64,000 bases of DNA, taken from assembly GCF_000455825.1 (NCBI RefSeq), contig NZ_ATAO01000002.1:62001-126000 (forward strand), given 5' to 3'. Shown piece by piece: positions 23,953-45,432 of this stretch. Each line of letters starts with the position of its first letter. The first letter of the stretch is position 1. The DNA comes from Microbacterium maritypicum MF109. GTDB lineage: Bacteria > Actinomycetota > Actinomycetes > Actinomycetales > Microbacteriaceae. Position numbers and translations under genes: made by a program. The notes below the pieces were generated by a model. That model did not search any database. It saw nothing but the letters and a program-made list of their open reading frames with translations, and was not told the DNA's origin.

Positions 23953-26811
23953 ATGACCGAGTTGAGGCCACAGAACTCTCTAGATGCGCTCGAGGTCCTT
24001 CACTCGCGTCTCGACGCTCACTTCAGCGAGTTGAAACAGCGGAGGCAGGCGTTCTCCACCGAAGCCCCTGTGTTCGCTCTCGAGCACGGGCTTTCCCTGA
24101 CCGATATCGATGCGCTGAACGCAAGCGTGCGGTTCGCGGTCACCCACGGATTCAGCGCCCTGTACTGGCGGAAAAACTGGCTGCCCTTCGTTGTCTACGC
24201 GGCAGAGTCCGGCTACGACTACGAGGGCAGCGAATTCTGGCCGAGCTTCGAGCAAGCCACACCGGGCTGGGCGGTCCACGGCGATCGGGACCGTATCCGG
24301 ACGATGTTCCGGAGGTTCGGCACCGATTACGGTGGAGCTATCCCCACCGGCGGCTTCGCACAGAACTTCCCGATCATCGCTTGGCCGATTACGCACGCCG
24401 TTCTACCGGTGTATCTGCAGCGTCACCTCGCTCAGCTGCTTTACGAGTTCCGCATGGGCTTGACCACCGAACTGCTCCGGCAGCCGGAAGACCTTGGCAA
24501 GCGTTTGTCAGCTCGCGCCTGGGGCTACACCGAGCGGTTCCGCATCTTCTGCTCAAATACGTCACTACTCGGGCATGTCGCGGCGGCGCTGCTCTCCGGT
24601 GAGGACGAAGAATCGCCTTACCTGCTGCACTCGACGCTGCTGCGGCTGGTCGAGGGGCTGGAGCAGGAGCGCCAGTCCAAGTTCTGGTTGCAGGGAGCCC
24701 GAAACGCTGCGAGTCGAGTCCGCGCCCAAGGATTTCAACCTGGAGCCTCCTGCACCGGAGCAGGCACTCAGCGGGACCGACTACCGAACCCGACAGACCC
24801 GCGCCTCGTCCTGCGGGGTAGCGATACGGGCTGGCGGGCATACGCCCAGTTGCCAGATCTCCGCAGTTTGAGCCGCCGACTGACCCACGTCTACGACGAA
24901 CTGCGTACCCGACGTGCGCGCGTAGCAGGCGCCGAAGACATCGTCTTGGCTCGTGGCCGTCTCGTGACGCCAGGCCAGCAGGTCCGGCTAACTCATTGGC
25001 CCGACCCCGAGACATCATTTATCGAGCTTGAGGACGGCAGTAGCGATGTCAACGCCTTGCTTCGCGACCAGGTGGAAATCTCTCGTGGTCCGGTCTGGTT
25101 GTTTAAGCGGCGGGCACCTGGCCTGGCTGTCGAGGTCAAGAGCAAAGTGGTCCGCCCCGACAACACCTACTACCTCGTCCACGCTGAGGGCTGGGTAGGT
25201 GAGGGCGCTCCTGGACTGGATCCGATCAAGCTTGACGTAGCCGGAGCAGCGGCAAGTCGACTAGTCGTGCCCGAGCAACTCACTGCCGCAGAGTCCAATG
25301 CCCTCCTAGCTGCCGGGCTGAGTGTGGTCACCAACGTGGCGATTCGTCCAGTCGGAATCGTGGCAAGTTCGTGGGACGGTGAAGGAGCTGTCGAGTGGAT
25401 TGCTGGTGAGCCGGGTCTGATCGGCATCCACGCCGAGCAAGTTCCGGCGGGCGGCGCTCTGAGTCTGGACGGCGAGCGATACAACCTTGAGTGGCCCGAG
25501 GGCAGCAGCGAACTCTACTTAACCCTGGACGATCTCTCGGTGGGCGACCACGAGTTGCGCGTCACGTTGACCGGCGTCGCCCAGCAAACCTTGGCCGAGG
25601 GATCGCTGCTGGTGACGATTCGCGACCCCCAGGTGCGCCGCGACGCTGCCGAGGTCGGCGAGGGAATCCGGTTGCTGGCATCGCCGGCCCGCCCCAATAT
25701 GAGCGAGATTTGGGCACCTGGAGCGGTCACGATCGCGGGGCCTGATGGCCTGCGAGTCGACCTAGCCATATCGCTCCGAGGTGAGGCCGACCGGGAGCTA
25801 ACCAAGATCTCGCATCCCATCACCTTGCCGCTTCTCGACTCCGATTGGATCGGCGTCGCCAAGAAAGTCCGCGACGACAGCCGCTTCACCGGGAACTTCG
25901 ATCAGGCCGAGTCGCTGGAGCTGACGGTGTCTAGCGCAGGGGTCGGCCAAGCCACACTTCGGGCAGATCGCGGCTTCCAGCCCCTGCGGTGGCAGCTACT
26001 TCGGGAACGAGAGCAGACCCGTGCCCACCTCATCGATAGGACCGACAGCCCCGGCACACGGGTGCTCTTGTACCGGTTCGAAACACCGGTGGCCCTCGAA
26101 GAACTCGACCCGAACTCCGACGTAGTTGCTCCGGCGACTGGCGGTCTCCTGACCGCGAAAGGTGGAGAGGGGATCGACGCTTCCGCCACCATCCTGCTCC
26201 CGACACGACCGAACGACCTGCTGGGAATTCGTGTTAGGCCGAACGTCCCGACCGGACCGCGGACTCCGGGGGAACTCCTTCGACTGGTGTTTCACTACCG
26301 GCGGTGGGCAGAGGCCGACCTGCCCGGTGACATCTTCGCCCAGCACCATCGGGACGCCGTACTCGAAGCCATCACCCGTGCGCTGGTTTCTCTAGCGTGT
26401 GGAAACCGCTGGGCAGCCCTTGAGAATAGACTCGCCAACTCGAACGATCCCCTCGGTCTGATCGACGAGGTGCAGGCTCTCGTTGGAGACAGCGATGATC
26501 ACACGCGTCTGGCGAAGAAGATCGGACGCAGCCTCTACGCATGGCAAGACCCGGCCTCCCTCTTGACGGGATTTGACGAGGTCATCCAGGGGTCATTGCG
26601 AGCCAATGGGGTAATAGGGCATGACTCGGCTCCGCGATTTCTTCTGTCGCTTGCGGGGCGCCCCAGCCAAGTGCTGTCCTGGCAGGAAGTCGAGCGAGGC
26701 TATCTGATGCAGCAAGTCATCGCTTCACCAGCGCTGCTGCGTGCCGCCAGATTCGCCGTCGTCGGTACCCGGCTAATGGGTGAAGCCGAGCTAGCGGCTA
26801 GGGGGTTCTGA
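23953..26811 (+). CDS. Large unknown protein, first gene of the Druantia-like operon
   Basis: The 952-aa soluble protein has two parts. The N-terminal part (about 1-250) contains YWRKNWLPFVVYAAESGYDY, SEFWPSFEQATPGW and FPIIAWPITHAVLPVYLQRH. It resembles, from memory, the STY4851/ECs_5259-type proteins found next to large helicases in enterobacterial defence islands. The rest is beta-rich (about 330-750) and then helical. No catalytic motif is seen. The start is ATG 23953 with GGAGGGGG just upstream; an open frame reaches back to 23797. The stop overlaps the next ATG. In Druantia type I loci two or three unknown proteins precede the giant helicase, and this gene occupies that place (possibly DruC-like). 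Confidence 0.75.
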   Translation: MTELRPQNSLDALEVLHSRLDAHFSELKQRRQAFSTEAPVFALEHGLSLTDIDALNASVRFAVTHGFSALYWRKNWLPFVVYAAESGYDYEGSEFWPSFEQATPGWAVHGDRDRIRTMFRRFGTDYGGAIPTGGFAQNFPIIAWPITHAVLPVYLQRHLAQLLYEFRMGLTTELLRQPEDLGKRLSARAWGYTERFRIFCSNTSLLGHVAAALLSGEDEESPYLLHSTLLRLVEGLEQERQSKFWLQGARNAASRVRAQGFQPGASCTGAGTQRDRLPNPTDPRLVLRGSDTGWRAYAQLPDLRSLSRRLTHVYDELRTRRARVAGAEDIVLARGRLVTPGQQVRLTHWPDPETSFIELEDGSSDVNALLRDQVEISRGPVWLFKRRAPGLAVEVKSKVVRPDNTYYLVHAEGWVGEGAPGLDPIKLDVAGAAASRLVVPEQLTAAESNALLAAGLSVVTNVAIRPVGIVASSWDGEGAVEWIAGEPGLIGIHAEQVPAGGALSLDGERYNLEWPEGSSELYLTLDDLSVGDHELRVTLTGVAQQTLAEGSLLVTIRDPQVRRDAAEVGEGIRLLASPARPNMSEIWAPGAVTIAGPDGLRVDLAISLRGEADRELTKISHPITLPLLDSDWIGVAKKVRDDSRFTGNFDQAESLELTVSSAGVGQATLRADRGFQPLRWQLLREREQTRAHLIDRTDSPGTRVLLYRFETPVALEELDPNSDVVAPATGGLLTAKGGEGIDASATILLPTRPNDLLGIRVRPNVPTGPRTPGELLRLVFHYRRWAEADLPGDIFAQHHRDAVLEAITRALVSLACGNRWAALENRLANSNDPLGLIDEVQALVGDSDDHTRLAKKIGRSLYAWQDPASLLTGFDEVIQGSLRANGVIGHDSAPRFLLSLAGRPSQVLSWQEVERGYLMQQVIASPALLRAARFAVVGTRLMGEAELAARGF

Positions 26812-27899
26812 TGGGTATCGCCACACGCACCGTAGACGAGGTCGCCATGATCTCGGTCCGAGCCTTAGGCCTGGACGAGGAGTGCTTCGGCCTGGACTAC
26901 CCGGAGGCGGTTGCCGCTTCGGTGCGACGTGCCGCATCCTTCCTATGCCCGACGACGCCGCGAGCCTTGACGGATGCCGTGCTCGAGGCGTTGACTCCGG
27001 TGCTGCCAGAGCCGCCAACCCGCGATGACCTTATGGCCTTGATCGATCAATTAGTCTCAGGAGGCGACCTGCTGGAGATGGCCGATGCCACTTCAGATCG
27101 CAAGATTCGCCTGCTGTACCTTGGGCCACCAAGCTTTGTGCCGAAGTCAGCTAACCGCTTTCTCCTGACAGGCATTCGCCCGCACGGAGCAGCGCTGGTT
27201 CCGGCCGATGTTGCCGTCAAGGCGGAGGCTCACATTCGGGCGGTTTTGCTCGACGGCGATGACGCGGAAGGCAGACTTCGGGCGGCCGGGCTGCACAAGA
27301 TCAGTGTTCAACACTGGATCGGCCAGCCCGCAATCGTGGCGGCCCAAGACTTCATCGACCAGTTCCGGCAGCGCCTCGCCAACTCACCGGCAGCTGGGTT
27401 CGTCGACGGGCTGACCATCATCAACCCCGGATCTCGGCCGACCTACTACAAGGGACGCTGGCGCGCGCCGGCATCAGGAGACAACGGCGACTACGTCGGG
27501 CGGCGCCCGCAGGCGTACGGCGCCGACCGTTGGTGCGTTGTTCGGCTGGTCGACGGGGCACCGGAGAAGTTGCTCGACCTACCACTAGACAACGCTGTGT
27601 CTCCTGCGCGTGATGACGCCTGGCGCTTGCAGGCGGCCATCGACGCGGCCCGCCACACGCCGCTTGGCTATCGGGTCCAGCCGATTCCAGGCACGACGCC
27701 GATTACCGAGTACATCGTCGACTTCTTCTCGCCGCTGCCCAGTTGGGTAGAGCGGTACCTTGAACTGGCCGGAATCTCCGTGGATAGGTCCCGCGGCGCC
27801 TTGTTCTCGTACCGGATTCCGGCATCTGCACTCGCAGAACTCCAGTCAGTGGTGACCGGGACTCTGTGGATGACGACTACCCAGGGGGACAACCAGTGA
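26811..27899 (+). CDS. Unknown protein, second gene of the Druantia-like operon
   Basis: The 362-aa soluble protein has no recognised catalytic motif. The N-terminal part is helical. The middle has RKIRLLYLGPPSFVPKSANR and TIINPGSRPTYYKGRWRAPA, and the C-terminal part ends in YRIPASALAELQSVVTGTLW. It starts at the ATG that overlaps the previous stop (TGATG) and its own stop overlaps the GTG of the helicase gene (GTGA), so stoichiometric co-expression with both neighbours is likely. Its size and position match DruD of Druantia type I (a protein of about 350 aa directly before druE), which is a positional inference only. Confidence 0.75.
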   Translation: MGIATRTVDEVAMISVRALGLDEECFGLDYPEAVAASVRRAASFLCPTTPRALTDAVLEALTPVLPEPPTRDDLMALIDQLVSGGDLLEMADATSDRKIRLLYLGPPSFVPKSANRFLLTGIRPHGAALVPADVAVKAEAHIRAVLLDGDDAEGRLRAAGLHKISVQHWIGQPAIVAAQDFIDQFRQRLANSPAAGFVDGLTIINPGSRPTYYKGRWRAPASGDNGDYVGRRPQAYGADRWCVVRLVDGAPEKLLDLPLDNAVSPARDDAWRLQAAIDAARHTPLGYRVQPIPGTTPITEYIVDFFSPLPSWVERYLELAGISVDRSRGALFSYRIPASALAELQSVVTGTLWMTTTQGDNQ

Positions 27900-30800
27900 C
27901 TGCAGAAGCACCAACCATCGCCGAGACGATCACCAAGATTCAGTCCGCTCTTCGCGATTACATCGAAGCGACCTATCACATCGGCCATCCGACGCTCATC
28001 GAGCAGCGCCGCGAGATTCTCGACCAGGAAGGCGTCATCTCTCAAGCGCCGTTTATCGAGAGCACACCTCGCTACCAGACCGGCCGCCGCTTCTCAGACT
28101 TGGAGCTCGATCCGTCCGCCCAGAAACTCTTCGCGTCGATAGCCAGCAACGTAGGCGGATCGCGACTGCTCTACGACCCGCCCTATACACATCAGGCCAA
28201 AGCACTCGAATGGACTATGCGAGATGGTCTGAGCCTGGCGGTGACCACTGGCACTGGTTCGGGCAAGACCGAGTCCTTCCTTTTGCCAATGCTGGCGAAG
28301 CTGGCTCGGGAGGCGGCCAACAGCCCGCAATCCTTTGCACGTCCAGCAGTCAGGGCATTGGTCCTCTATCCGATGAATGCGCTGGTCAACGACCAACTGG
28401 GTCGTCTCAGGCTGCTGCTGGGCGACAATCGGGTCACCAACCAGTTCCAGTCGTGGGCAGGACGCCCGGCTCGCTTCGCCCGCTACACCAGCCGCACGCT
28501 CTACCCGGGGGTCCGCAAGACGGAGCGCGACCAGACACGCCTCAAGTCAGTCGAGGACTTCTACATCGACCTGCTGGACCGTCAGGACGATCCAAATGCT
28601 CGTCACCATGAAGCTGCGTCCAAGCTGGTTGGTCAATTGAGACAGCGCGGCAAGTGGCCTGCCAAGCCCGATCTCCGCACTTGGTACGGGACCAAGGGAA
28701 GCCGATGGAAGAACAGCTCTGGTGAATTCGTCCGGGCGATCGTGCAGCCCGACGATTCGGAGCTGCTCACGCGGCATGAGGTTCTCGCGGCCCCGCCGGA
28801 CGTCCTGATCACCAACTATTCGATGCTCGAATACATGCTGATGCGTCCGCTGGAACGACCGGTGTTTGACGCCACCCGCGCGTGGTTGGCGGACAACCCG
28901 AACGAGAAGTTCCTGCTGATCGTCGACGAGGCACACCTCTACCGCGGTGCCGCTGGCGCTGAGGTTGCTCTACTCCTGCGTCGGCTTCGAGCCCGGCTGG
29001 GCGTTCCAGCCGACAGACTCCAGGTCATTGCCACAAGCGCGAGCTTCAACGATCAGGCCTACGCCAGTGCCTTCGCCGCGCAGCTTTCTGGCAAAGATCC
29101 CGCGGAGTTCCGGACCGTCACCGGAGAACTGAACCTGCGATCGACTGCGGCACCGGGGACGATGAGCGACGCGAGCCTCCTGGCAGGACTACCGCTCGAC
29201 GACTTCTACGACGGCAATACTGACCCCGAAAGGGTTGCGGCCGTGCAGGAGTTGCTAGACGCCCGCTGCATCTCGGCCAGCCCGGACGACGGGGTCGGTG
29301 TTCTGCTGCACCGGGCGTTGTCGGACTACGAGCCGATGGGTCTGCTGGTCAACGAAACTATGCAGGAAGCCCAGCCCGTCGGTGAGCTCGGCGGCAAGAT
29401 CTTCCCGGATGCCGATCGCGAGACCGCAGATCGAGCCGTCACGGCGCTGGTAGCACTCGGCAGTGTAGCCAGACTTAGCGCCGATGATGCTGGTCTGCTG
29501 CCCTGTCGCGTTCACGCCTTTTATCGAGGGTTGCCCGGCCTGTGGGCGTGCGCTGATGCCGACTGCACTGCTGTCGACCGCGACACCGCGGGACCGGTCG
29601 GGAAACTCTACGGACAGCCGCGGGAGACGTGTGAGTGCGGGGCGCGGGTGTTCGAGCTCTACACCTGCAGGCACTGTGGGTCGGCCTACCTGCGTGCCTA
29701 CACAGACGACCCGGCCAGCCCGAAGTCGCTTTGGCATGAACCAGGCAATAGCTTCCAGACCGCCACAGGTCTGGTACCGCAGCTGCAACCGCTCGATCTT
29801 TTGGTCGAAGAACCCGACCCCGATCAAGCTGCCGAGATCGCCGATCTGGATCTCATCACTGGGCGGCTCAACCCGGTCAAGCTCGGGTCACGCACTCGAA
29901 GCGTCTATCTGCCGGGCAAGCGGAACGGCGAGGTGGTCGATACCGACGATGACGACGAGGACGACGGAGATAGCAAGACCACTGGCAGCGGAGAATTCAA
30001 GCCATGCGGAGTTTGTCGCAAGCTGGCTGGATTCGGGCGTTCCTCGGTCCAGGATCACCAGACAAAGGGCGACCAGCCCTTCCAGGCCCTGATCGCCCGG
30101 CAGATTGAGGTCCAACCTCCTTCCAGCCCCTACAGCGACTTCGCACCACTTCGCGGACGCAAGGTGCTGGCGTTTTCGGACTCTCGCCAGGTGGCGGCTC
30201 GACTTGCTCCGAATTTGCAAAGCTACGCTTTGCGGGACGTTATCCGACCACTGGTCATCCGCGGTTGGGGCGAAATCGCCAGGTTGCCCGGCATGGACAA
30301 GCAGATCGGCCTGCACCAGTTGGTGCTGGCGACTCTGGTCGGTGCCAAGAAGCTCAAAGTCCGGCTTAGGCCGGAGCTTCGCCAGGGTGAGTCGATGGCC
30401 GTCCTACGGGACGTCGGTCGATTGATCGATGCCGGAGCGCTGTCAGGCGACATTGCGGCACAGATGGAACTGGTGTCGCTGGCGGTATACCCGCCCGAGT
30501 CGTTAATGAAGGCGATCTACTCCACGCTGATCGACCGCTACTACGGCATAGCAGCGCTGGGTTTGGCGTCGCTTCGCGAGCGGGAGACCGACAGGGCTGG
30601 GCTCTTGGCGGATCTTACGAATCTGCCAGGCGTTGCCGACACCGATGAGAAAAAGCTCGCTCTAGTCCGAGTCTGGCTGGCTCAGTGGGCCACGCCGAGC
30701 TACGGCATCTGGTTTCCGAACATGACGATGGACTGGCGGGGGAAGAAAGAAGGCGTCCGACCTCACGCAGGCAAGTTCCGGCCGTTCGAGCGTTGGCTTG

Positions 30801-33469
30801 ACTCGTCGATCCTCGTCAGGCAGTTCAACAAGGAGTGGCTGCCGGTTCTTCAGCAGCGGTTCTGCGAGGTGGCCGGCGGTAACAAACACTACTTGTTGGC
30901 CGGCAAAGTCGCGCTGGAGCTCGAAGGCGAGTGGGGCTACTGCGAACGCTGCCGTTTCACCCAGCGGCCGTTCCCAGGATCGTCCAAGTGCGTCAGCTGT
31001 GGTGATGACCAGGTGCAAGTCATTGACCCGGACAGCGATCCGGTGTTTAGCGCCCGTAAAGGCTATTACCGAGCCAGCACGGTGCGCGCGCTGCGGGATA
31101 ACCCCGAAACGCCAATGAGCATCATCGCGGCCGAGCACACCGCACAGCTGAACGCGGCCCAGTCCGAGGCCGTGTTCTCCAAGGCGGAGGAGCACGAGCT
31201 GCTGTTCCAGGACATTGACATTGAATTGCCGAATGCCGGCGCCCAGGAGCGGGCAGCCATCGACGTACTGTCCTGCACTACGACGATGGAGGTCGGCATC
31301 GACATCGGTGCGTTGTCCGGGGTTGCCCTTCGCAACATGCCACCGTCCCGAGCGAACTACCAACAGCGAGCTGGTCGGGCCGGACGCCGCGGCAATGCCG
31401 TCGCAACCGTCGTGGCATTCGGAAGCTCCGATACACATGACGACCACTACTTCCGCGAGCCGGCCGAGATGATCCGGGGCAAGGTCGTCGACCCGGTCCT
31501 AACGATGGACAACGACGAAATCGCCAAACGGCATGTCATCGCATACCTATTGCAGCGATACCACCAGGACAAGCTGCCCACCTTCGACCCCGATACTCAG
31601 AAGTCGCAGCTCTTCGAAGTGCTTGGCACAGTGCCGGAGTTTGTGGGCACCGCGTCGCTGCTCAACCGAACCGACCTAGAAAAGTGGCTCAACCAGAACG
31701 AGGCGTCGCTCCGGGCGGATATCGACGATTGGTTGCCCTCAGAGCTTCCGTCCGCAAGCCGTCAGCAGGTTCTGGATGGCATCGTCTCGAACACGTTGGT
31801 TGCGATCGACAGTGCTCTTGATCTGACAGATGCAGGGACGCTGCCCCCTCCAGAGGCCGGCGACTCGATGCCCGAAGCTGAGGAAGCGGAAGCCGAAGGC
31901 CCGGCAGAGGACGGAGCCGAGGAGCCCAGTCCGATGCGAAGCCAGACCAATCTGCTAGACCGACTGCTTTACAAGGGCGTGCTGCCGAGATACGCCTTCC
32001 CGACCGATGTAGCAACCTTTCACGTTTTCGACGTTGACCGCTCCGAACCCTTCCGAGTTGCCTACCGCTACGCGCCTAGCCAGGGACTTCCCGTCGCCCT
32101 CAGCCAGTACGCCCCCGGCAAGGACGTGTGGATTGACAACAAAGAGTGGCACTCCGGGGCGATCTACTCGCCGGTCAAAGCGGAGCGGTACAAGGCATGG
32201 CAAGAGCACAAGCTCTACTTCGAATGCCGAGTCTGCCACTACGCCAAGTATTACGACCAGGAGGAAGCGCACCCTGGTGAGATCCGCGAGTGCGAAGCCT
32301 GCGGCACCGAAGGTTCGTTTGGAGAGGCGATGGCCTGGATGCGTCCGCCAGGATTCGCGCACCCGGCCGACGAGACCGAGGGAACTAGCCCTGATGACGC
32401 CCCGGCCCGTAGCTATGCCACTCGCGCCAAGCTGGTCGCTCCAGGACCAGATGACGAGTCGGCTTGGGATGAGGTGACCGACCGAATCCGACAGACCTAT
32501 CACCGCGAGACATTGATCGTCACCAACACCGGTCCCGGCAACGAGGGCTACACCTACTGCTTCAAGTGCGGCAAGATCGAGCCGACCGCTCTCCCCACAG
32601 GAACGGTAGTGGGGCAGCACAAGAAGCCATTCCCAGACCCGAACGAGCAGGACTGTTCTGGGAACTCGGCGTGGCGGGGTCTGGCACTGGGGACGGACTT
32701 CATTACTGATGTTCTACTGGTCCGGCTAAAGGTGGCTTCGCCAGTTCGTTTGGCTCCGCAGTTCTTGTCGACACAGGTGGCGCTTCGCACTATCGCCGAG
32801 GCTATGACCATCGCCGCGACTCAACTGCTCGACATCGAGGCGACCGAGCTCCAGGCGGAGTTCCGTCCGGCTCTCACGCCAGGCGGAGCTGCTGGGCTGG
32901 AGGCTGAGATCTACCTCTACGACACTTTGGCTGGTGGCGCGGGATTCACCCGTCGCGTCGAGGAACTAGGCATTCAGGTTCTGGAGGAGACCCTCAAGCG
33001 CTTGGAGAACTGCCCTGCCGCTTGCGACCAGTCCTGTTATCGATGCATCCGCAGCTTCCGCAACCGCTTCGAGCATGGACTCCTAGACCGCAAGGTTGGG
33101 GCAGGTCTGCTGCGGTACCTCCTGTATGGCACCGCCCCGACGCTCGACGAATCGCGACTGGAGTTGTCAATCGGACGGCTCTACGGCGACCTCAAGGGAC
33201 GCGGCATTTCAGGGGTCGAGTTCGAGCGGGACGTCGAGGTCAGTATCCCCGGCATTGGCACAGTGACCGCGCCGATTCTGGCGACGAAGGGCGACCGGAG
33301 GTTCATCTTCGGAGTGCACAGCCCGCTGACGCCGCATTTAGCTTCCGATGACTTGCTAAACGATGCTAAGGAGAACCAGGCGGTTATTCCGGTCCGACTG
33401 GTCGATGACATCGAGATCTCACGGAGCTTGCCAAATGCCAGCCTTGCCGTTGAGAAGATTCTGCTTTGA
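27896..33469 (+). CDS. druE: Giant DUF1998 DEAD/DEAH helicase, DruE-like
   Basis: The 1857-aa superfamily 2 helicase has Walker A TTGTGSGKTES (about 118-128), the partner motif VLYPMNALVNDQLGRL, TNYSMLEYMLMRP, Walker B VDEAHLYRG (about 342) and motif VI QQRAGRAGRRG (about 1157). Several Cys4-type zinc elements lie between and after the lobes (CECGARVFELYTCRHC, CERCRF...CVSCGDD, CRVCHY...CEACGTEG). The C-terminal DUF1998 domain contains YLYDTLAGGAGFTRR and CPAACDQSCYRCIRSF (about 1700-1720). The acidic linker near residue 685 is a run of Asp/Glu. Length and architecture fit DruE of Druantia; DISARM DrmA/DrmB splits these functions. The GTG at 27896 has AGGGGGA upstream. It is coupled to both neighbours by overlaps. 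Confidence 0.88.
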   Translation: MTAEAPTIAETITKIQSALRDYIEATYHIGHPTLIEQRREILDQEGVISQAPFIESTPRYQTGRRFSDLELDPSAQKLFASIASNVGGSRLLYDPPYTHQAKALEWTMRDGLSLAVTTGTGSGKTESFLLPMLAKLAREAANSPQSFARPAVRALVLYPMNALVNDQLGRLRLLLGDNRVTNQFQSWAGRPARFARYTSRTLYPGVRKTERDQTRLKSVEDFYIDLLDRQDDPNARHHEAASKLVGQLRQRGKWPAKPDLRTWYGTKGSRWKNSSGEFVRAIVQPDDSELLTRHEVLAAPPDVLITNYSMLEYMLMRPLERPVFDATRAWLADNPNEKFLLIVDEAHLYRGAAGAEVALLLRRLRARLGVPADRLQVIATSASFNDQAYASAFAAQLSGKDPAEFRTVTGELNLRSTAAPGTMSDASLLAGLPLDDFYDGNTDPERVAAVQELLDARCISASPDDGVGVLLHRALSDYEPMGLLVNETMQEAQPVGELGGKIFPDADRETADRAVTALVALGSVARLSADDAGLLPCRVHAFYRGLPGLWACADADCTAVDRDTAGPVGKLYGQPRETCECGARVFELYTCRHCGSAYLRAYTDDPASPKSLWHEPGNSFQTATGLVPQLQPLDLLVEEPDPDQAAEIADLDLITGRLNPVKLGSRTRSVYLPGKRNGEVVDTDDDDEDDGDSKTTGSGEFKPCGVCRKLAGFGRSSVQDHQTKGDQPFQALIARQIEVQPPSSPYSDFAPLRGRKVLAFSDSRQVAARLAPNLQSYALRDVIRPLVIRGWGEIARLPGMDKQIGLHQLVLATLVGAKKLKVRLRPELRQGESMAVLRDVGRLIDAGALSGDIAAQMELVSLAVYPPESLMKAIYSTLIDRYYGIAALGLASLRERETDRAGLLADLTNLPGVADTDEKKLALVRVWLAQWATPSYGIWFPNMTMDWRGKKEGVRPHAGKFRPFERWLDSSILVRQFNKEWLPVLQQRFCEVAGGNKHYLLAGKVALELEGEWGYCERCRFTQRPFPGSSKCVSCGDDQVQVIDPDSDPVFSARKGYYRASTVRALRDNPETPMSIIAAEHTAQLNAAQSEAVFSKAEEHELLFQDIDIELPNAGAQERAAIDVLSCTTTMEVGIDIGALSGVALRNMPPSRANYQQRAGRAGRRGNAVATVVAFGSSDTHDDHYFREPAEMIRGKVVDPVLTMDNDEIAKRHVIAYLLQRYHQDKLPTFDPDTQKSQLFEVLGTVPEFVGTASLLNRTDLEKWLNQNEASLRADIDDWLPSELPSASRQQVLDGIVSNTLVAIDSALDLTDAGTLPPPEAGDSMPEAEEAEAEGPAEDGAEEPSPMRSQTNLLDRLLYKGVLPRYAFPTDVATFHVFDVDRSEPFRVAYRYAPSQGLPVALSQYAPGKDVWIDNKEWHSGAIYSPVKAERYKAWQEHKLYFECRVCHYAKYYDQEEAHPGEIRECEACGTEGSFGEAMAWMRPPGFAHPADETEGTSPDDAPARSYATRAKLVAPGPDDESAWDEVTDRIRQTYHRETLIVTNTGPGNEGYTYCFKCGKIEPTALPTGTVVGQHKKPFPDPNEQDCSGNSAWRGLALGTDFITDVLLVRLKVASPVRLAPQFLSTQVALRTIAEAMTIAATQLLDIEATELQAEFRPALTPGGAAGLEAEIYLYDTLAGGAGFTRRVEELGIQVLEETLKRLENCPAACDQSCYRCIRSFRNRFEHGLLDRKVGAGLLRYLLYGTAPTLDESRLELSIGRLYGDLKGRGISGVEFERDVEVSIPGIGTVTAPILATKGDRRFIFGVHSPLTPHLASDDLLNDAKENQAVIPVRLVDDIEISRSLPNASLAVEKILL

Positions 33470-34695
33470 CGGAATCGCCGCGCACCTTCGCTACCGGCAT
33501 CGCTTCCAGCCGAGCGATGTTGGCAGCCCAGCCCGCCCGCTGGAGTTACTCGACGCTGGAAGAAGCAACGGCTTGTCCGCTGCGGTACTGCCTGCAGCGA
33601 GCAACCTACCCGGATCTGGGGGACCACAAGGGCTACCCGTCGTTGCCATCGGTTTCGGCGTTGTTCGGCAACGTCGTGCACGGGGTCTTGGAAACTGTAG
33701 TCAAGGCGATGGCTGAAGCGGGCGTGGAGTCGCCGCAGGCCGAATCAGCAGCCAACGTAATCCGCGATCTCGGTGGATTCACGTCGGTAGTTGAGAGGGA
33801 GGTCGCTAGGCAGCTCGCTCCGCTGAAGGACAATATGCGCCTGTCCAAAGATCGCCAGCGCCGGATTGCAATCGACCTAGAAGCCCAGGTCGCCGATGCT
33901 CGGGCACAGGTACAGACGTACCTCAGTCGCACGAGGTTCGTGCCCGGTGCACGGCGTGCTACCTTCAGCTCCGGCAATGTTGAGCCGCGAGCGATTGTGC
34001 GCCGCGAACTCGGAGAGGGATCACACGCAGAGGTTGAGCTGGTCGCAGAGCGCCAGCGGCTGTATGGGCGGGTTGATCTGCTGACGCTCTCACGCGATCA
34101 GATCAACATCATCGACTACAAGACTGGCGGCGAGTCTGACGGCCACGCGGACCAATTGCGGCTCTATGCCTGGCTTTGGGGAGCAGACGACAAAGTCAAT
34201 CCGCGAGGACGGGACGTCACCAGTCTCACTGCGGCCTACCGCGACCACGATGTGACTGTCGGCGTTCCGGATCCGGACCAACTGATCGCGCTGTCCCATG
34301 AGTTCGCTACCAAGATCGCCGATGCAGACAGGGAGATTGCCTCGGGCGACCCCGTCGCGAAGCCTAGTCAGAAGAACTGCCGCCACTGCGCGGTACGTCA
34401 CCTTTGCGCCAGCTACTGGATCACTATCGCTCCGAAACTTTCCCACGTCGGGCAAGGGGAGTTTTTCGACTACGAGGGTGTGATTGGCGAGCAGAACGGA
34501 CAGCGCAGCTGGTGGCTCCTAAACGACGCTGGTCACCCTGACCTGTTACTTCGTACCAGCACATCTACGCCACCGTTCGCGTCGGGAGAACGTTTCCGTT
34601 TCCTGGGACTGCGTCGTGATACCGACCCGCAGGTGGCCTGGTCAATCGGGTCTCTGACCGTGGCGACTGAGGCGTTTCGGGTCGAGTCGGCTTAG
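33466..34695 (+). CDS. Cas4/AddB-like PD-(D/E)XK nuclease with Fe-S cysteines
   Basis: The 409-aa RecB-family nuclease has the metal-binding Asp in GRVDLL (about 201), the catalytic pair IIDYKTGG (D about 216, K about 218), and the downstream QLRLYAWLW (family Q-x-x-x-Y). Four cysteines, C-P-L-R-Y-C (about 37-42) and CRHCAVRHLC (about 305-314), are arranged as in Cas4 and AddB, predicting a 4Fe-4S cluster that clamps the fold. The start is TTG 33466, overlapping the helicase stop (TTGA); ATG 33517 would lose the first 17 residues but keep the cysteines. It is absent from textbook Druantia loci. Its 3' end overlaps that of the convergent DUF4338 gene. Confidence 0.88.
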   Translation: MTESPRTFATGIASSRAMLAAQPARWSYSTLEEATACPLRYCLQRATYPDLGDHKGYPSLPSVSALFGNVVHGVLETVVKAMAEAGVESPQAESAANVIRDLGGFTSVVEREVARQLAPLKDNMRLSKDRQRRIAIDLEAQVADARAQVQTYLSRTRFVPGARRATFSSGNVEPRAIVRRELGEGSHAEVELVAERQRLYGRVDLLTLSRDQINIIDYKTGGESDGHADQLRLYAWLWGADDKVNPRGRDVTSLTAAYRDHDVTVGVPDPDQLIALSHEFATKIADADREIASGDPVAKPSQKNCRHCAVRHLCASYWITIAPKLSHVGQGEFFDYEGVIGEQNGQRSWWLLNDAGHPDLLLRTSTSTPPFASGERFRFLGLRRDTDPQVAWSIGSLTVATEAFRVESA

Positions 34696-36680
34696 GAACT
34701 GTCGGCGGAGAAGAACATCGATTCCGTGGGAGTGGTGTCGGTCTCATCGGTCGGCAAGGGGACGCGAGCTCCGTGGCTGATCGGGCGAACTAGCCGGTGG
34801 CGACGCATGCTCTCAAGCACAGCAGGCTGGACTGCCCGTCGCTGCCCCCACCGTTCGAACCACCAAACGCCAACGGATGTCTCATCCGCTTGCTCCGGAT
34901 CCAAAAGGTACTCAGGAGCAGGATCAATCCCGAGCGAGTAATCACGGAGGTTCTCAACCAGCTTGATGCCATAGACGATCCGTTCCCGGCCATGCTTCAG
35001 CAACTCGCTACTCGGCCACCCAAGGGCAGCCAAGCCGAGACGTACCTTTCGTAGACGCGGGCTGACACCTTCGCCGAACACGCTGTTGACCCGGACGACC
35101 GCGCCCTTGACTCGGGACAACCGAACCAACGCATCGACCGTCTCGTCAGTGAAGTGCGACGTTCCGAAGGAGCGGGATCGGCCGAGTTCGGTGAAGCTGA
35201 TCCATTTATCGTTCGGTCCCCCCATTACGGCGGCCGGCCAACGGAGCCGGTTGTACTGGCTGGAGCCGCTGCCATATAGCGAGGTGGTGCTGATGAAGGA
35301 GAGTCGCGACTCGCGTTCGATCGGCCGACCGGCCATCGAAGAAGCGATGTCGCTCGGCCGGGAGTATTTGGCGCGATAGGCAGCGATGACCTTGGGGGAT
35401 ACGGCCAGGGCGCCGACCAACTTGCCTGCGGCCAGAGCGTTGTATGGAGCGACAGCGCCGCAGACGGTTAGGTCGGCAATCACAGTGCCGACTCGTTCGC
35501 CACGTGCTCGGCGAATCAAGCGGCGGAGTTGCACTTTCGCTTTGGTGTCACTCAGCGCTTGGCAGAGGCCATCTGCTGCCGGCTTCGGCGAGAAGAATGG
35601 CCGGAGGGTACGGGAGGCCTCAAGCGTGTCAGCCAGCATTGCTGCACGCTTACTGCGGAACAGGTGGGAGGTGGCCCGCTGGACCCAGGGATCCTGTTCT
35701 ATCTGCCGCACTTCACTGAGTGGAGTCCGATGGTGTTTCTGGCGGTGACGCTCGGCATCAGCCCGGAGCATGGCGATCGCCTCGTTGGTCGGGTGATGCA
35801 GATCGGTCGGCTGAAGAACGTTGTCGGCTAGAAGATCCTCAAGGTAGATCTCCCCAAGCTGCGCGTCGATTCTGCCAGCGAGCCACGCGGCGATCTCATC
35901 AGAAGGAGCCTTACGAACCTCTTCAAGGAACGTGTCGGTGCCCCAGCCGATCCATTCGTCGCGCTCAGCGATTTGAACGACCGGGCTGGAGATCGCTGCC
36001 AACCCGATGACCGCATGGTGTGGCGTGGCCGCATCGCGTATCAAGATTGGCATAGAGCGCCCGGGCACCGTGGAGTAGGCGTTCGACCACGTGTGCCGGA
36101 AGTACCGCCAGATATCGTGCAGAAGATAGCCGGTGCGCTCACACCTACTTCCATCGACGATCTGGATGTAGGGGCGGATCACCGAACCGGGGTCCGGTGC
36201 CGTCGTTAATGAGTCCGCGAGTTCACGACCGTCACGCATCAAGTTGAAGACAGTGACCAGTTTGCCCTTGAACTCGCGGGGCTTCTCCATGCCCTCAACG
36301 AAGCGACGGACGCTGGCTTTTCTGAGCTGAGGATCGCGGCGAAGGTGCTCCTGGCGACGAACTCGGGCCTTCTCAACCACCGGATCCGCGTTCGAGGGCG
36401 GCGGAGCGAGGAGTGGGCCATGCTTGTACGCGGTTGAGAGAGTCCAGCCTTGCTCTACAAGGTCGATGAGGGTGTTGGCGGCTGCCGCCAAGGTCGGCTT
36501 GTTGTACAGGTCTCCCAAACCAGCCTCGGCGAACCACAAGTTGCGGTCAATGGCGTCAGCAGGATCGAGACTCGCGGTCGCCAGTGCTGTACAGAGACGG
36601 AGGAAGGCAACACGCTCTGCTTTCGGCGTGCCGGTTGGGAGCGAGATGTTGAGGAACGTCGAATCATCTGCTGCGGTCAT
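34692..36680 (-). CDS. druA: DUF4338 protein, Druantia DruA-like
   Basis: The 662-aa protein's central and C-terminal two thirds carry the DUF4338 pattern that I associate with DruA: PHHAVIGLAAISSPVVQIAE followed by RDEWIGW (about 215-245), TVCGAVAPYNALAAGKLVGA (about 400-420), SSMAGRPIERESRLSFIST, TTSLYGSGSSQYNRLRWPA (about 465-483), and an end segment FTDETVDALVRLSR. The biochemical role of DUF4338 is not established. It is coupled by ATGA to the GHKL ATPase gene upstream, and its TAA overlaps the nuclease's TAG at 34692-34695, tying it to the helicase operon. It is larger than the DruA of about 400 aa that I recall from E. coli. Confidence 0.75.
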   Translation of the reverse strand: MTAADDSTFLNISLPTGTPKAERVAFLRLCTALATASLDPADAIDRNLWFAEAGLGDLYNKPTLAAAANTLIDLVEQGWTLSTAYKHGPLLAPPPSNADPVVEKARVRRQEHLRRDPQLRKASVRRFVEGMEKPREFKGKLVTVFNLMRDGRELADSLTTAPDPGSVIRPYIQIVDGSRCERTGYLLHDIWRYFRHTWSNAYSTVPGRSMPILIRDAATPHHAVIGLAAISSPVVQIAERDEWIGWGTDTFLEEVRKAPSDEIAAWLAGRIDAQLGEIYLEDLLADNVLQPTDLHHPTNEAIAMLRADAERHRQKHHRTPLSEVRQIEQDPWVQRATSHLFRSKRAAMLADTLEASRTLRPFFSPKPAADGLCQALSDTKAKVQLRRLIRRARGERVGTVIADLTVCGAVAPYNALAAGKLVGALAVSPKVIAAYRAKYSRPSDIASSMAGRPIERESRLSFISTTSLYGSGSSQYNRLRWPAAVMGGPNDKWISFTELGRSRSFGTSHFTDETVDALVRLSRVKGAVVRVNSVFGEGVSPRLRKVRLGLAALGWPSSELLKHGRERIVYGIKLVENLRDYSLGIDPAPEYLLDPEQADETSVGVWWFERWGQRRAVQPAVLESMRRHRLVRPISHGARVPLPTDETDTTPTESMFFSADSS

Positions 36681-38128
36681 GACTTGGCCAGCATTCGCCC
36701 ATACGTCGCACCCCAGGTCTGGAGTAGTTCCTGGCGCTCCCGCGTAGTGACATCCATGGATGCAATTGATCGGGCGAAGGAAAGCAACATGAGTTCCAGG
36801 GCAGTTCGCACGGGGGTACCAGACTCTCCCAGTTCCTGGAGCGGGCGGTAGAGCGCGCTGAATGCGGGATGGTCGGTGTTCAAGGTGACGTCGATGCGGC
36901 GCTGCTTCAGCGTCAATTCAAACATCGACTCTCCCGTTAGTTGGTCAGCTCCCAGGCGGTAGCTCAGAGCACCGGTCGCGCGCCCTGCGGTGCGGATCAC
37001 CGGCAAATCGGCGTCAGCCGCGCCCGCGATGCGACAGGATCCTTGGACGGCCGCCTCGAATTTTACCTCCTCGAATGCCTGACGAACACGAGCGTTGAGG
37101 ATGCGGGCGATCGATTCAAGCTCGGGTTCTAGTGCCTCTCGCAAGGCGGCTGAGGGGCGAACACCCTGCTTGTTGATCGTGATCCCGAAGTCCTCATCAA
37201 GTGCAGGATCGAACTCAATCTCGCATCGCCACCAGTCGTCGTAGTTTTCTTTCCGCTTGCCGCCCATGAGGTACCACCCACTGGCGATCTCTCGCCCCGC
37301 TCGCAGGATCGAAACCCCGCCGTGACCGACGACTCCTACCCGCCGCTTCGTAGCGTTGTCGAGGTGATGCCAACGAGCAACTGGGAGCATTGCGAACGTA
37401 ACAGTGACGCAACTCGTCTCACCGGTGGCGGTGGAGATCTCGTATCGCAGCGGGTCAAACGCGAGGCGAGCGGAGTGACCGCTAACCGTCGTGTTGAGTA
37501 GCAATGGGTCAACCGGGTCGACCTCATGTCCGTTGATCCGCATGGTCGTGCCACGATCAAGGAACTTGCGAAACATTCGGCCGAGGTCTCGGTGGAGCGC
37601 ACGTTCCAGCCACGCCAGACGTCGGTACTCGATCCGGTCGCACTCATTCCACGTGACGCGGCACCCAGATGGCGCGACGCCTCCGTGCCCGTCAACCGCC
37701 GACAAGGATGCCTCTTCGCCCTGCGCCACCGCATCAACATCCAGGTGAACCGCGCGCGCCGGGGTGCCCGGTCGCCAGGTTGCCACCTCGATATGTCGAG
37801 CCTGGCTTAGCGACGCAGCGGGCAGCCCCATGCCGAACCGCCCGAACGAAGAACGCGAGTCGAAACGAGATGACCCACCAAATCGCAGGCAGGTGATCAG
37901 TTCCTCGTCCGACATGCCACGACCGTCGTCCTCAACACTGATCCACGGCAGCGCATCTGGTCCAGATCGACCGATTGCGATGTCGATGACAGCGGCATTC
38001 GCTTGGATTGAGTTGTCTACGAGTTCCGCGAGCGCCGTGGAAAGGCTGACGTAGCCCGACTCGCGGATTGCGCGGATGAAGTTGGCTGGCACCAGCAAGT
38101 CGACTGTGCTGCCCTGTTTGCGGCCCAT
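36677..38128 (-). CDS. GHKL (Hsp90/MutL-type) ATPase
   Basis: The 483-aa protein has an N-terminal Bergerat-fold ATPase: N-box ALAELVDNSIQA (E35, N39), G1 box SVEDDGRGMSDEE (D67, G70) and G2 box SFGRFGMGLPAA (about 95-104). A MutL-like transducer region follows, with ITINKQGVRPS (about 325), where the Lys could contact ATP. The C-terminal 120 residues are helical and unassigned. Related ATPases occur in several defence systems (MZA, Zn-protease/GHKL pairs) as sensors or clamps. It leads a two-gene operon with the DruA-like gene. The ATG at 38128 has AGGGAG upstream. The 265-bp gap before it (38129-38393) must hold its promoter; I see no gene there. Confidence 0.85.
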   Translation of the reverse strand: MGRKQGSTVDLLVPANFIRAIRESGYVSLSTALAELVDNSIQANAAVIDIAIGRSGPDALPWISVEDDGRGMSDEELITCLRFGGSSRFDSRSSFGRFGMGLPAASLSQARHIEVATWRPGTPARAVHLDVDAVAQGEEASLSAVDGHGGVAPSGCRVTWNECDRIEYRRLAWLERALHRDLGRMFRKFLDRGTTMRINGHEVDPVDPLLLNTTVSGHSARLAFDPLRYEISTATGETSCVTVTFAMLPVARWHHLDNATKRRVGVVGHGGVSILRAGREIASGWYLMGGKRKENYDDWWRCEIEFDPALDEDFGITINKQGVRPSAALREALEPELESIARILNARVRQAFEEVKFEAAVQGSCRIAGAADADLPVIRTAGRATGALSYRLGADQLTGESMFELTLKQRRIDVTLNTDHPAFSALYRPLQELGESGTPVRTALELMLLSFARSIASMDVTTRERQELLQTWGATYGRMLAKS

Positions 38129-40771: not shown

Positions 40772-41674
40772 TTACCTTGGACCCAGTTCGACCCGATGAT
40801 GCAGCACCCGCGCCCGAATCGTCTTGGCCCTCGGGAGCATGCGCTTGGCAGAGGGCGTAAGCACGCAACCACCCTGCACAGGGACTGCGGATGTTCCGTT
40901 CCAGAGCTCACGTCCTTGAATCCTCAACCCGTCGAGGAGGCCCTCGACGGCCCGCCGCCCCGCAGCGTGCGTGGCGACAAGGCGATCGAACAGCATTGCG
41001 AGCGCGTACCCTCCGAGGCCATGCGGCATCAGGACGTTTGCGAGACGGGCGTCGGCGAGCACGGCCGTCAGCGAAATCCGCCGCGGAAACAGTTGGATCT
41101 CGTTATCCAGCGGGTCCGCTGCGCTCTCAGCCTCAGCGTTGCCCAGTTGCAATAACTCCGTGGCTGCCTCTACTTCAGGTGATCTGTACGGCACGCCGCG
41201 AAGGGTGAGAGAGCCGTTGAGTATGCGTTGCGCGACCACCTGTTTAGATCTTCCCGATAGGCCGATGTCACGACCGTTACCGTGCCACCTTCGATGGCGC
41301 ACGCAGATCGGACCGTGCATGCGCGCCACTGTGATCAACTCGCCTGCTGAGCACCGCCGGCAGAGCGCTACTGCTGCCGGAATCATGCGACAACTCGGAC
41401 ATTCCACTTGGCGCGTTGCTCCTCCGTGATCACAACCGCGACCGCCGGAGTCTCGGAGCAGGGCGCCTTCGGGGAGACGACCCAAGGCCTCAATCTGCCA
41501 GAGGGCGCTTCTCGGCGTCACCCGGATAGGAAGTGCGGGGTCATCGTGGCGCAACGCCAACCAGAGGTCCTTCTGGCCGATCGCGTTGGCAGCGCAGAGC
41601 CGCGCCCAGTAGCTCACTGGCGTCTCACCCGGGTAGAGGCGAACAGCGATCGGAAGCCCGCGCAGCAAGGTCAT
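40772..41674 (-). CDS. tniQ: TniQ-family target-selection protein 1
   Basis: The 300-aa protein has the N-terminal signature LYPGETPVSYWARLCAANAI, then the zinc cluster CPSC...CRRC...CVRHRRWHGNG (about 90-140), followed by a helical C-terminal domain ending in basic residues (RAKTIRARVLHHRVELGPR). It is paralogous to the next gene. The ATGA overlap with tnsC shows translational coupling. Its short C terminus is nearer to TniQ of Tn5053-type elements than to full-length TnsD (about 500 aa). Confidence 0.82.
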   Translation of the reverse strand: MTLLRGLPIAVRLYPGETPVSYWARLCAANAIGQKDLWLALRHDDPALPIRVTPRSALWQIEALGRLPEGALLRDSGGRGCDHGGATRQVECPSCRMIPAAVALCRRCSAGELITVARMHGPICVRHRRWHGNGRDIGLSGRSKQVVAQRILNGSLTLRGVPYRSPEVEAATELLQLGNAEAESAADPLDNEIQLFPRRISLTAVLADARLANVLMPHGLGGYALAMLFDRLVATHAAGRRAVEGLLDGLRIQGRELWNGTSAVPVQGGCVLTPSAKRMLPRAKTIRARVLHHRVELGPR

Positions 41675-44695: not shown

Positions 44696-45432
44696 CACGC
44701 TCTCCTTTCCCACACGATCGATTTGGTACTGAGTGCCTCTTCGAGATCCGTCTCGAGGAGCCCCGACCAGAGGTGCGCGTAGCAACGCGCATATCCCTCG
44801 GATCCGACGCCGAGCAACGCAGCAGCCTCGGCCAAAGGCAACCCGTCCTCCGGCAGCCCCGGCAGTTCCTCAGTGCTCGCGCTGCCTCGGAACGGCGCGA
44901 GGAATCGCAGGTTCGCTTCTCGAATCTGTGATTCGGCGTCATAGACGACATACCGCCATCCGCGCTCAGCGGCGAACTGCCCAGTCATGTCGAACTGCGC
45001 CCTGACGTCGTCGTCGATCCGAGCCGCAGGTTTGACGTCCATCAGCACGGCCGTCCCGTCGTCCAGACGCACGAAATAGTCCGGGTAATGCTCGCGCAGG
45101 CCGTCGGGAGTGACCCATCGAATCCACATCGGCTGACTCGCGACTGCAACAACACCCGGCGTGCGGTCCAACTCGATGAGACAGCCTCGCTCGGTCAAAG
45201 ACTCGAAGCCGATCGACGAGCCGAGCGCGCCCATCCAGTGGTAGCCGTCGTGATGCCGTTTGAGTCGCCAACTAGGGAAAGTCCGAGCAGGGTCGCCTCG
45301 TTCGAAGGGGACGTCATCGCAATCGACGGCGTCGAGCTCCAGTTGCACGCCATCGAGACGGTACTCGACGCGCGCTCGCGTCACGCCTACTCCGGGAGCG
45401 AGAGGGGTCGGCCACTGCAGGGTCAGGTCCAT
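44695..45432 (-). CDS. tnsA: TnsA-like endonuclease subunit
   Basis: The 245-aa protein has the TnsA restriction-like core: FESLTERGCLIELDRTPGV (E77 and E81), REHYPDYFVRLDDG (D118) and AVLMDVKPA (D132, K134). This gives an E...D...D-V-K arrangement close to the E-D-K triad of Tn7 TnsA. The C-terminal part (TEELPGLPEDGLPLAEAAAL) is a helical domain where Tn7 TnsA contacts TnsC. TnsA cuts the 5' strands so that the element moves by cut and paste. It is the first gene inside the right end, overlaps tnsB by one base, and the 176-bp gap to the right-end repeats must hold the promoter of the transposition operon. Confidence 0.85.
   Translation of the reverse strand: MDLTLQWPTPLAPGVGVTRARVEYRLDGVQLELDAVDCDDVPFERGDPARTFPSWRLKRHHDGYHWMGALGSSIGFESLTERGCLIELDRTPGVVAVASQPMWIRWVTPDGLREHYPDYFVRLDDGTAVLMDVKPAARIDDDVRAQFDMTGQFAAERGWRYVVYDAESQIREANLRFLAPFRGSASTEELPGLPEDGLPLAEAAALLGVGSEGYARCYAHLWSGLLETDLEEALSTKSIVWERRA

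What the first reader, a model, noticed from the sequence alone, without database searches (positions are those of the whole stretch)
23953..38128. Putative new Druantia-like defence system with a GHKL ATPase and a Cas4-like nuclease
Seen: a 1857-aa DUF1998 helicase (DruE-like) preceded by two unknown proteins, and a DUF4338 (DruA-like) protein. These are the two hallmark families of Druantia type I. Additional parts not in the described type I layout, as far as I know, are a Fe-S PD-(D/E)XK nuclease after the helicase and a GHKL ATPase before the DruA-like gene. The two operons are tail-to-tail with overlapping stops, so they travel as one unit inside a transposon.
Basis: partly seen in the sequence, partly recalled or inferred. 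Interest (0 to 1): 0.9.

Follow-up and report, generated by a model that had tools for sequence, protein, structure and literature searches.

The report
Druantia-I variant with MORC-like ATPase module
A bacterial transposon carries a six-gene relative of the Druantia anti-phage system in which a MORC/MutL-like ATPase and a separate DNA-cutting enzyme are added to the known helicase core, and the same set recurs in rearranged order in several bacterial phyla.

Summary
Confirmed and extended. The window holds six tightly packed genes: an unknown 952-aa protein (C952), DruD, DruE, an Fe-S-type PD-(D/E)XK nuclease, and convergently a long DruA and a GHKL ATPase, as cargo of a Tn7/Tn5053-like element. 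DruA, DruD and DruE match PADLOC Druantia type I profiles full length; DruB and DruC were not found and C952 stands in their place. In 82 loci (the window and 81 found by DruD homology) the core C952-DruD-DruE is constant and two slots vary. DruA is long, with a helical insert and an adjacent GHKL (44 of 44), or short with no GHKL seen in the locus (28); ten could not be typed. After DruE the 44 long loci have the window's nuclease (24), a PD-(D/E)XK-like nuclease-helicase (8), DUF4365+PDC-M02B (9) or none of these (3). All six genes occur in 24 of 82 loci, in four phyla; the long loci show four arrangements. The GHKL is nearest to MORC2 and MutL; DruA models as a GNAT-like fold; C952 has Ig-like domains. 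Best read as a new variant of Druantia type I with exchangeable ATPase and nuclease modules. No held paper names both Druantia and GHKL. Defence is untested.

The parts
23953..26811 (+). C952: 952-aa core protein in the place of DruB+DruC; model: N-terminal helical part, Ig-like beta-sandwiches (within about residues 459-753), C-terminal helical part
   Evidence: no PADLOC, Pfam, NCBIfam or PHROG match at E 0.001; found in 80 of the 82 loci, the other two starting inside DruD; model pLDDT 89.1, pTM 0.55; single Ig-like domain e.g. Z 9.6, rmsd 2.1 over 87 residues
26811..27899 (+). DruD
   Evidence: PADLOC DruD1 PDLC00010, 441 bits, residues 1-361
27896..33469 (+). DruE: YprA/MrfA-family SF2 helicase, 1857 aa; the part after the Zn cluster shows no conserved (D/E)xK
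   Evidence: PADLOC DruE1, 2029 bits; DEAD, Helicase_C, MZB; C-terminal conservation in 71 rows at the 85% level
33466..34695 (+). PD-(D/E)XK nuclease with four invariant Cys of Fe-S type (C37, C305, C308, C314) and E189, D204, D217, K219
   Evidence: PDDEXK_1 84 bits; invariant in 21 of 21 rows with at least 90% profile coverage, of 25 loci with a hit (numbers converted from the span)
34692..36680 (-). DruA, long form, 662 aa; GNAT-like fold split by a helical insert
   Evidence: PADLOC DruA1 PDLC00001, 980 bits; PF14236; model pLDDT 86.8; GNAT structures lead the VIA list, best Z 9.0, rmsd 3.9 over 160 residues
35490..35939 (-). helical insert of DruA, residues about 248-397, absent from short DruAs
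   Evidence: alignment of 37 rows: residues 256-398 absent from short DruAs; model helices 248-396
36677..38128 (-). GHKL ATPase with intact motif residues (E35, D38, N39; D67, G69, G71; G99, G101)
   Evidence: HATPase_c_3 84 bits; residues invariant in 11 of 11 aligned rows; nearest solved structures by sequence MORC2, then MutL
40775..45432 (-). transposition genes: TniQ-like 40775-41674, TniB 41674-42696, TniA/TnsB-like 42854-44785, TnsA-like 44698-45432
   Evidence: Pfam matches, TniQ and rve under the curated cut-off
20531..20541 (+). left end of the transposon (5'-TGTCCGATCTC); flank 20526-20530 CCGTC
   Evidence: no direct repeats found at this end
45677..45687 (-). right end of the transposon (inverted TGTCCGATCTC), repeated end motifs inside it; flank 45688-45692 CCGTC

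Best explanation
It is a Druantia type I-like anti-phage system with a constant core (C952, DruD, DruE) and two exchangeable modules. Shown here: gene content, intact ATPase and nuclease motifs, recurrence and swapping. Inferred: C952, with DruD, detects or docks to the phage trigger and loads DruE; DruE, a YprA-family helicase, moves along DNA with single-stranded parts, as reported for DruE of Druantia III. The DruE tail shows no conserved nuclease site, so where the slot is filled the cut is made in trans by the nuclease encoded behind DruE. The GHKL with the long DruA acts as an ATP-gated DNA clamp that couples recognition to helicase and nuclease, as MutL couples mismatch recognition to UvrD and MutH and as MORC entraps DNA. 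DruA would be the adaptor of that clamp, the helical insert being a candidate contact.
For: DruE1, DruD1 and DruA1 full-length matches. All six genes in 24 of 82 loci; GHKL beside long DruA in 44 of 44; four arrangements: 36 convergent, 6 and 1 collinear, 1 divergent. Slot exchange among the 44: 24 Cas4-like, 8 nuclease-helicase, 9 DUF4365+PDC-M02B, 3 none of these. Cas4-like nuclease residues invariant in 21 of 21; the nuclease-helicase has an invariant E-D-ExK set (E12, D55, E97, K99) and Walker A in 12 of 12 aligned rows. GHKL motifs in 11 of 11; MORC2/MutL nearest. DruE tail without a conserved (D/E)xK in 71 rows, agreeing with PMC12458937, which predicts an inactivated Vsr domain in type I DruE. 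Druantia III DruE engages 3'-tailed DNA (PMC13192584, section heading and passages). MORC/paraMORC ATPases occur with SFII helicases and nucleases in restriction operons (PMC2292703).
Against: No defence experiment. 17 of the 28 short-DruA loci show none of the three slot families (at least L049 and L057 end before the slot) and one more, L080, ends before DruE, so a core without a trans nuclease may work. DruA type and GHKL each change only 3 times on the core tree; the sign test (2 pairs, p 0.5) cannot show significance. Outside the DruD-selected set the insert-GHKL rule breaks: L113 has a GHKL with a short DruA, L109 a long DruA without a recognisable GHKL. Whether DruA is an active acetyltransferase, and of what, is unknown. 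The Ig-like parts of C952 are not its fastest-changing parts; the C-terminal helical part is, which does not favour an Ig-based sensor.
Confidence: 0.6

Rival explanations
1. Two neighbouring systems: a complete C952-DruD-DruE(-nuclease) system and an independent GHKL-DruA (DUF4338) system, placed side by side in one transposon and often co-inherited.
For: A GHKL next to a short DruA-family gene without DruE, DruD or C952 in the 19.9 kb fetched (L113). The two blocks are convergent, i.e. separately transcribed, in 36 of 44 long loci. Leisingera and Paracoccus plasmids join GHKL and long DruA to another DruE form.
Against: A DruA, long or short, was seen in 72 of 82 loci; of the other ten, nine are cut by a contig end near the core and one (L006) is an IS-broken copy. 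Collinear layouts put GHKL-DruA in line with C952-DruD-DruE (L044, L045, L047, L052, L082, L091). DruA is a listed type I component (PMC7251935 passage).
Confidence: 0.2
2. Ordinary Druantia type I: C952 is an extremely diverged counterpart of DruB and DruC, and GHKL and nuclease are unimportant passengers.
For: Same DruA/DruD/DruE profiles; C952 lies where P. putida has DruB and DruC (558 and 625 aa), between DruA and DruD, in the short-DruA and collinear loci.
Against: C952 profile against single DruB and DruC sequences: hhalign probability 0.3% and 0.1% (a single sequence is a weak partner). GHKL beside long DruA in 44 of 44 loci is not passenger behaviour.
Confidence: 0.12
3. A genome-maintenance or plasmid/transposon-exclusion device rather than an anti-phage system.
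For: GHKL is nearest to MORC and MutL, and part of the YprA family is DNA-repair helicases (PMC12458937). The window copy lies on a transposon and some relatives on plasmids.
Against: DruE matches the type I defence profile; patchy distribution: 3 of 396 genomes of the phylum have this DruD, the window's included, unlike housekeeping repair.
Confidence: 0.08

Closest known systems
Druantia type I (DruABCDE)
   Same: DruA, DruD and DruE profiles, full length; DruE with the MrfA-type Zn domain; DruA before the core in some relatives
   Different: no DruB or DruC detected, C952 in their place; long DruA with a helical insert; added GHKL ATPase and added PD-(D/E)XK nuclease; mostly two convergent gene blocks
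Four-gene short-DruA form of the same clade (e.g. Nitrosococcus watsonii plasmid, L005)
   Same: C952, DruD and DruE with a DruA
   Different: short DruA, no GHKL, no Cas4-like nuclease in L005; other members carry a nuclease-helicase (9 of 28) or a Cas4-like nuclease (1 of 28)
Prokaryotic MORC/paraMORC restriction operons (PMC2292703) and MZA (MzaB)
   Same: GHKL ATPase beside an SFII helicase and a nuclease; MzaB is the nearest named profile (68 bits PADLOC; 105 bits NCBIfam)
   Different: MzaB cut-off of 850 bits not reached; no methylase among the six; the words DUF1998, COG1205, YprA and acetyltransferase do not occur in that paper (parts 1-2 of 4 read)
Druantia type III (DruH-DruE)
   Same: DruE helicase; DruH also has helical ends around Ig-like domains (PMC13192584, section 13), as C952 does in its model
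   Different: no sequence similarity found between C952 and a DruH (hhalign probability 0.2%); type III DruE is a helicase-nuclease in itself (abstract); two genes only

Membership tests
Druantia (any type) | DruE, YprA-family helicase with DUF1998/MZB | tested here: met
   DruE1 2029 bits, residues 4-1855; MZB
Druantia type I | DruA | tested here: met
   PDLC00001 980 bits, residues 2-651
Druantia type I | DruD | tested here: met
   PDLC00010 441 bits; against P. putida DruD only a weak colinear match (probability 2.3%, E 0.02)
Druantia type I | DruB | tested here: not met
   no DruB profile match among the seven window proteins scanned; P. putida DruB found only itself in the reading frames of 86 loci (phmmer, E 0.001)
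Druantia type I | DruC | tested here: not met
   as for DruB; hhalign of C952 with DruC 0.1%
Druantia type I | anti-phage activity | not testable with these tools
   needs plaque assays
MZA system | MzaB above the curated cut-off | tested here: not met
   105 bits against 850
Prokaryotic MORC/paraMORC | GHKL domain with intact ATP motifs | tested here: met
Prokaryotic MORC/paraMORC | MORC signature in the S5 domain | not tested
   motif described in PMC2292703, not scored here
Cas4 | TIGR00372 above cut-off | tested here: not met
   26.5 bits against 65
PD-(D/E)XK (PDDEXK_1, RecB/Cas4-like) | profile over cut-off with catalytic residues and Fe-S-type cysteines | tested here: met
   84 bits against 22; invariant residues in 21 of 21
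PADLOC DruK | full-length DruK match | tested here: inconclusive
   55 bits over residues 180-321 only, the same stretch that Cas4 profiles match

The most novel reading that the evidence does not exclude
GHKL plus DruA is a portable ATP-driven DNA-clamp module (a MORC-type ATPase with a GNAT-fold adaptor) that has been fitted to more than one helicase defence core and also occurs alone. In this clade it brings the MutL/MORC logic of 'entrap DNA, then licence helicase and nuclease' into Druantia, while three different nuclease types compete for one effector slot and C952 is a structural counterpart of the DruH sensor.
Probability: 0.3. Interest if true: 0.85.

Novelty: new variant of a known kind. 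Interest (0 to 1): 0.62.

Why it matters
How multi-gene Druantia works is open: PMC13192584 describes type III, and PMC12458937 predicts that the nuclease domain of type I DruE is inactivated. This clade offers a natural experiment: one helicase core with and without an ATPase module, and with three alternative nuclease genes. It makes testable where the cutting activity of type I-like Druantia comes from, and links a MORC/MutL-like ATPase (in eukaryotes a silencer of transposons) to a helicase defence system. It also gives annotation tools three missing models: C952, the DruA-linked GHKL, and the slot nucleases.

Tried and rejected
C952 as a DruB or DruC relative: profile comparisons with the P. 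putida proteins gave no support. C952 as a sequence relative of DruH: none; only the layout is alike, and Ig-like folds are common. Foldseek of C952 against viral models gave phage proteins, some of them tail or Ig/FNIII proteins, at TM scores near 0.1; I draw nothing from it. Foldseek of DruA against PDB gave no match under E 0.001; the GNAT reading rests on the VIA list (best Z 9.0, only a little above the noise level of 7-8 that the tool names, but GNAT-type acetyltransferases fill its head) and on PMC10853773, which calls DUF4338 a GNAT domain (one passage seen). Rule 'insert only with GHKL': holds for the DruD-selected loci, fails outside (L109, L113). Fast-changing Ig domains as sensor evidence: not found. 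The window's transposition genes in relatives: none in L012-L091 at 1e-5, with 79 DruD rows as control, but these loci reach at most about 10 kb either side of DruD. Searches gave empty BLAST output, in 27 and 28 because the locus files were not where I looked, in 124 for a reason I did not establish; searches replaced them. Loss of catalysis in DruE was judged from conservation only. 'NERD' as the name of the slot nuclease-helicase was dropped: its only match to a NERD model (PADLOC C3a187) covers the helicase part, and the Leisingera NERD protein is at best a weak helicase-part match (E 0.013); the E-D-ExK residues are read from alignment A7 (12 of the 19 loci with a hit).

Counts: 82 loci = window, L012-L087 (76), three viral loci (L089-L091) and two plasmid loci (L005, L006). 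Of the five plasmid records I took two; the other three are Sinorhizobium records with the same match figures as L006. L088 (34-residue match) was dropped; L009, L010 and L011 came in by DruE and are not in the 82. L031 is counted as long with GHKL: in L031 its DruA is cut by the locus edge, and L093 shows GHKL beside a DruA that reads in two frames. L075, L076, L078, L083 and L087 got their GHKL. Among the 24 six-gene loci, L016 and L047 have DruE in two frames, L017 and L038 the nuclease in two and three frames, and in L047 the locus ends inside the nuclease. Identical L042/L043 and near-identical L013/L015 were not merged. Some short-DruA loci have little sequence upstream of DruA (L051 282 bases, L080 none, L049 and L071 about 1.1-1.3 kb), so 'no GHKL' is weaker there. 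Doron 2018 is not held and was not read; its type I layout is recalled and seen second-hand in PMC7251935; that '1' in PADLOC names means type I is recalled.
Full report
WHAT IS THERE. On the + strand: C952 (952 aa), DruD (362 aa), DruE (1857 aa), nuclease (409 aa); on the - strand, meeting the nuclease tail to tail: DruA (662 aa) preceded by GHKL (483 aa). PADLOC profiles match DruD (441 bits), DruE (2029 bits) and DruA (980 bits) over their whole length; the nuclease matches PDDEXK_1 and, weakly and partly, DruK and Cas4; the GHKL matches HATPase_c_3 and, weakly, MzaB; C952 matches nothing in PADLOC, Pfam, NCBIfam or PHROGs at E 0.001.

TRANSPOSON. GC is 0.62-0.64 between about 20 and 46 kb and 0.66-0.74 elsewhere, except one block of 0.63 at 10-12 kb. 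TnsA-, TniA/TnsB-, TniB- and TniQ-like genes lie at 40775-45432. TGTCCGATCTC stands at 20531 and inverted at 45677-45687; both flanks read CCGTC. The right end has repeated end motifs, the left end none that the repeat finder reports, and the end motif by itself is not rare in the window. I read the element as 20531-45687, 25,157 bp, with the six genes as cargo.

FAMILY SURVEY. In 396 genomes of the window's phylum (Actinomycetota by the named relatives) 3 have this DruD, the window's among them; the other two also carry all six genes, G307 in the window's layout and G036 with all genes on one strand. A DruD alignment found 77 loci in named genomes (one, L088, a chance match) and 3 in viral contigs. 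With two plasmids and the window this gives 82 loci, mapped with iterated HMMs. C952 was found in 80; the other two, L084 and L090, start inside DruD. 44 have a long DruA, 28 a short one, 10 show none: nine of these are cut by a contig end near the core (one, L033, has GHKL and long DruA on another contig) and one is an IS-broken plasmid copy. GHKL is next to DruA in 44 of 44 long loci (38 in the locus, 6 by going past its edge) and in 0 of 28 short ones as far as the loci reach. All six genes occur in 24 of 82: 18 Actinomycetota, 3 Acidobacteriota, 1 Gemmatimonadota, 1 Omnitrophota and the window itself; four of the 24 have a frame break in DruE or nuclease. The 44 long loci show four arrangements: 36 convergent, 6 collinear with DruA before the core, 1 collinear with DruA after it, 1 divergent. 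Reordering with the set kept is the strongest evidence for one system.

EXCHANGEABLE SLOT. After DruE the 44 long loci hold the Cas4-like nuclease (24), a 650-aa nuclease-helicase (8), DUF4365 with PDC-M02B (9) or none of these (3). Among the 28 short loci it is the nuclease-helicase in 9, the Cas4-like nuclease in 1, none of these in 17, and not covered in 1. The nuclease-helicase has an N-terminal E-D-ExK set and a Walker A motif invariant in 12 of 12 aligned rows; Pfam gives it only weak NTPase matches. DUF4365 is listed as a nuclease domain of short-Argonaute systems (PMC10810196, abstract in a search listing); its residues were not checked here. On the core tree (C952+DruD, 79 rows, quick method) DruA type changes 3 times, GHKL 3 times, slot 9 times. 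With 2-3 independent pairs no significance can be reached (p 0.5); long branches make some placements unsure.

PARTS. Nuclease: four Cys and the E-D-DxK residues are invariant in 21 of 21 rows with good coverage. GHKL: motif residues invariant in 11 of 11; nearest solved structures by sequence MORC2 (8e-12) and MutL (3e-8). DruA: model pLDDT 86.8; GNAT acetyltransferases lead the VIA list (best Z 9.0, rmsd 3.9, 160 residues), Foldseek alone found nothing significant; a helical stretch 248-396 splits the fold between two strands and is what short DruAs lack. C952: confident local model, pTM 0.55, Ig-like sandwiches within 459-753 (e.g. Z 9.6, rmsd 2.1, 87 residues; two-domain rows have rmsd over 12), no relation found to DruB, DruC or DruH. 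DruE: no conserved (D/E)xK after the Zn cluster in 71 rows, P. putida among those with full coverage, in line with the inactivated Vsr domain predicted for type I in PMC12458937 (Results parts 1-2 of 3 and figure legends read). Mean pairwise identity over 91 pairs of 14 loci: nuclease 0.47, C952 0.51, DruD 0.52, DruE 0.69, DruA 0.72.

RESULTS AGAINST A SIMPLE RULE. L113 (unnamed actinobacterium) has a GHKL directly before a short DruA-family gene with no DruE, DruD or C952 in the 19.9 kb fetched: the pair can stand alone. L109 (haloarchaeal plasmid) has a long DruA without a recognisable GHKL, and a PD-(D/E)XK nuclease after DruE. Of 6 of 396 genomes of the phylum with a DruA match at 1e-20, three are long, all with GHKL, and three short, one of them with GHKL (G382, L113), one without in 19.9 kb (G131, L114), one without in its 2.7-kb stretch. 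With the broader PF14236 profile 19 of 396 match, and GHKL is seen beside it only in those same four genomes (stretches of about 1.5 kb either side). Leisingera and Paracoccus plasmids carry GHKL and long DruA with a longer DruE form; Leisingera has a NERD protein after it. So GHKL-DruA is better seen as a module than as a fixed part.

LIKELY MECHANISM. See Best explanation. Shown: gene set, motifs, recurrence, exchange. From the literature: DruE of type III engages 3'-tailed DNA and DruH is its likely sensor (PMC13192584: outline, abstract, passages and section 13); MORC/paraMORC ATPases lie beside SFII helicases and nucleases in restriction operons, and MutL works with UvrD and MutH (PMC2292703, parts 1-2 of 4). 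Inferred: clamp, adaptor and sensor roles.

NOVELTY. No paper of the 5.39 million held contains both 'Druantia' and 'GHKL'; DUF4338 occurs in three. In the listings of the other searches (capped lists, titles and abstract starts) I saw no description of this set. Only open-licence papers are held; the supplementary tables of PMC12458937 and PADLOC's system files were not seen and may list such loci. Verdict: new variant of Druantia type I; not filed as a canonical member, since DruB and DruC were sought and not found.

Noticed in passing
L113:1164-4188: GHKL ATPase plus short DruA-family (DUF4338) gene as a pair, no Druantia helicase in the 19.9 kb fetched; may be a stand-alone two-gene system.
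   Followed up: partly
L109:5356-17262: Haloarchaeal plasmid with long DruA, two unknown proteins, DruE and a PD-(D/E)XK nuclease, and no GHKL recognised; two further unknown proteins lie behind DruA.
   Followed up: partly
L023:16771-18554 and eight other Streptomyces-type loci: PDC-M02A (DUF4365) and PDC-M02B, PADLOC phage-defence candidates, sit in the slot after DruE of the Druantia-I-like system.
   Followed up: partly
L009, L052, L077, L082: Two different GHKL genes in one locus, near DruA, perhaps a heterodimer as in MutL-type pairs.
   Followed up: no
L016:2478-5255 and L017:1-456: A second copy of the C952 gene upstream of the first, perhaps an alternative recognition subunit.
   Followed up: no
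window:21570-23474: 634-aa reading frame on the - strand inside the transposon with no match in Pfam, PADLOC, NCBIfam or PHROGs; unknown cargo.
   Followed up: partly
L006:7998-18698: Sinorhizobium plasmid copy with DruE in pieces around an IS3-family transposase gene, one piece inverted; no DruA found.
   Followed up: no
L047:11077-15023, L069:10966-12270, L072:11074-11755: Extra sequence or genes between DruD and DruE, which elsewhere lie close together.
   Followed up: no
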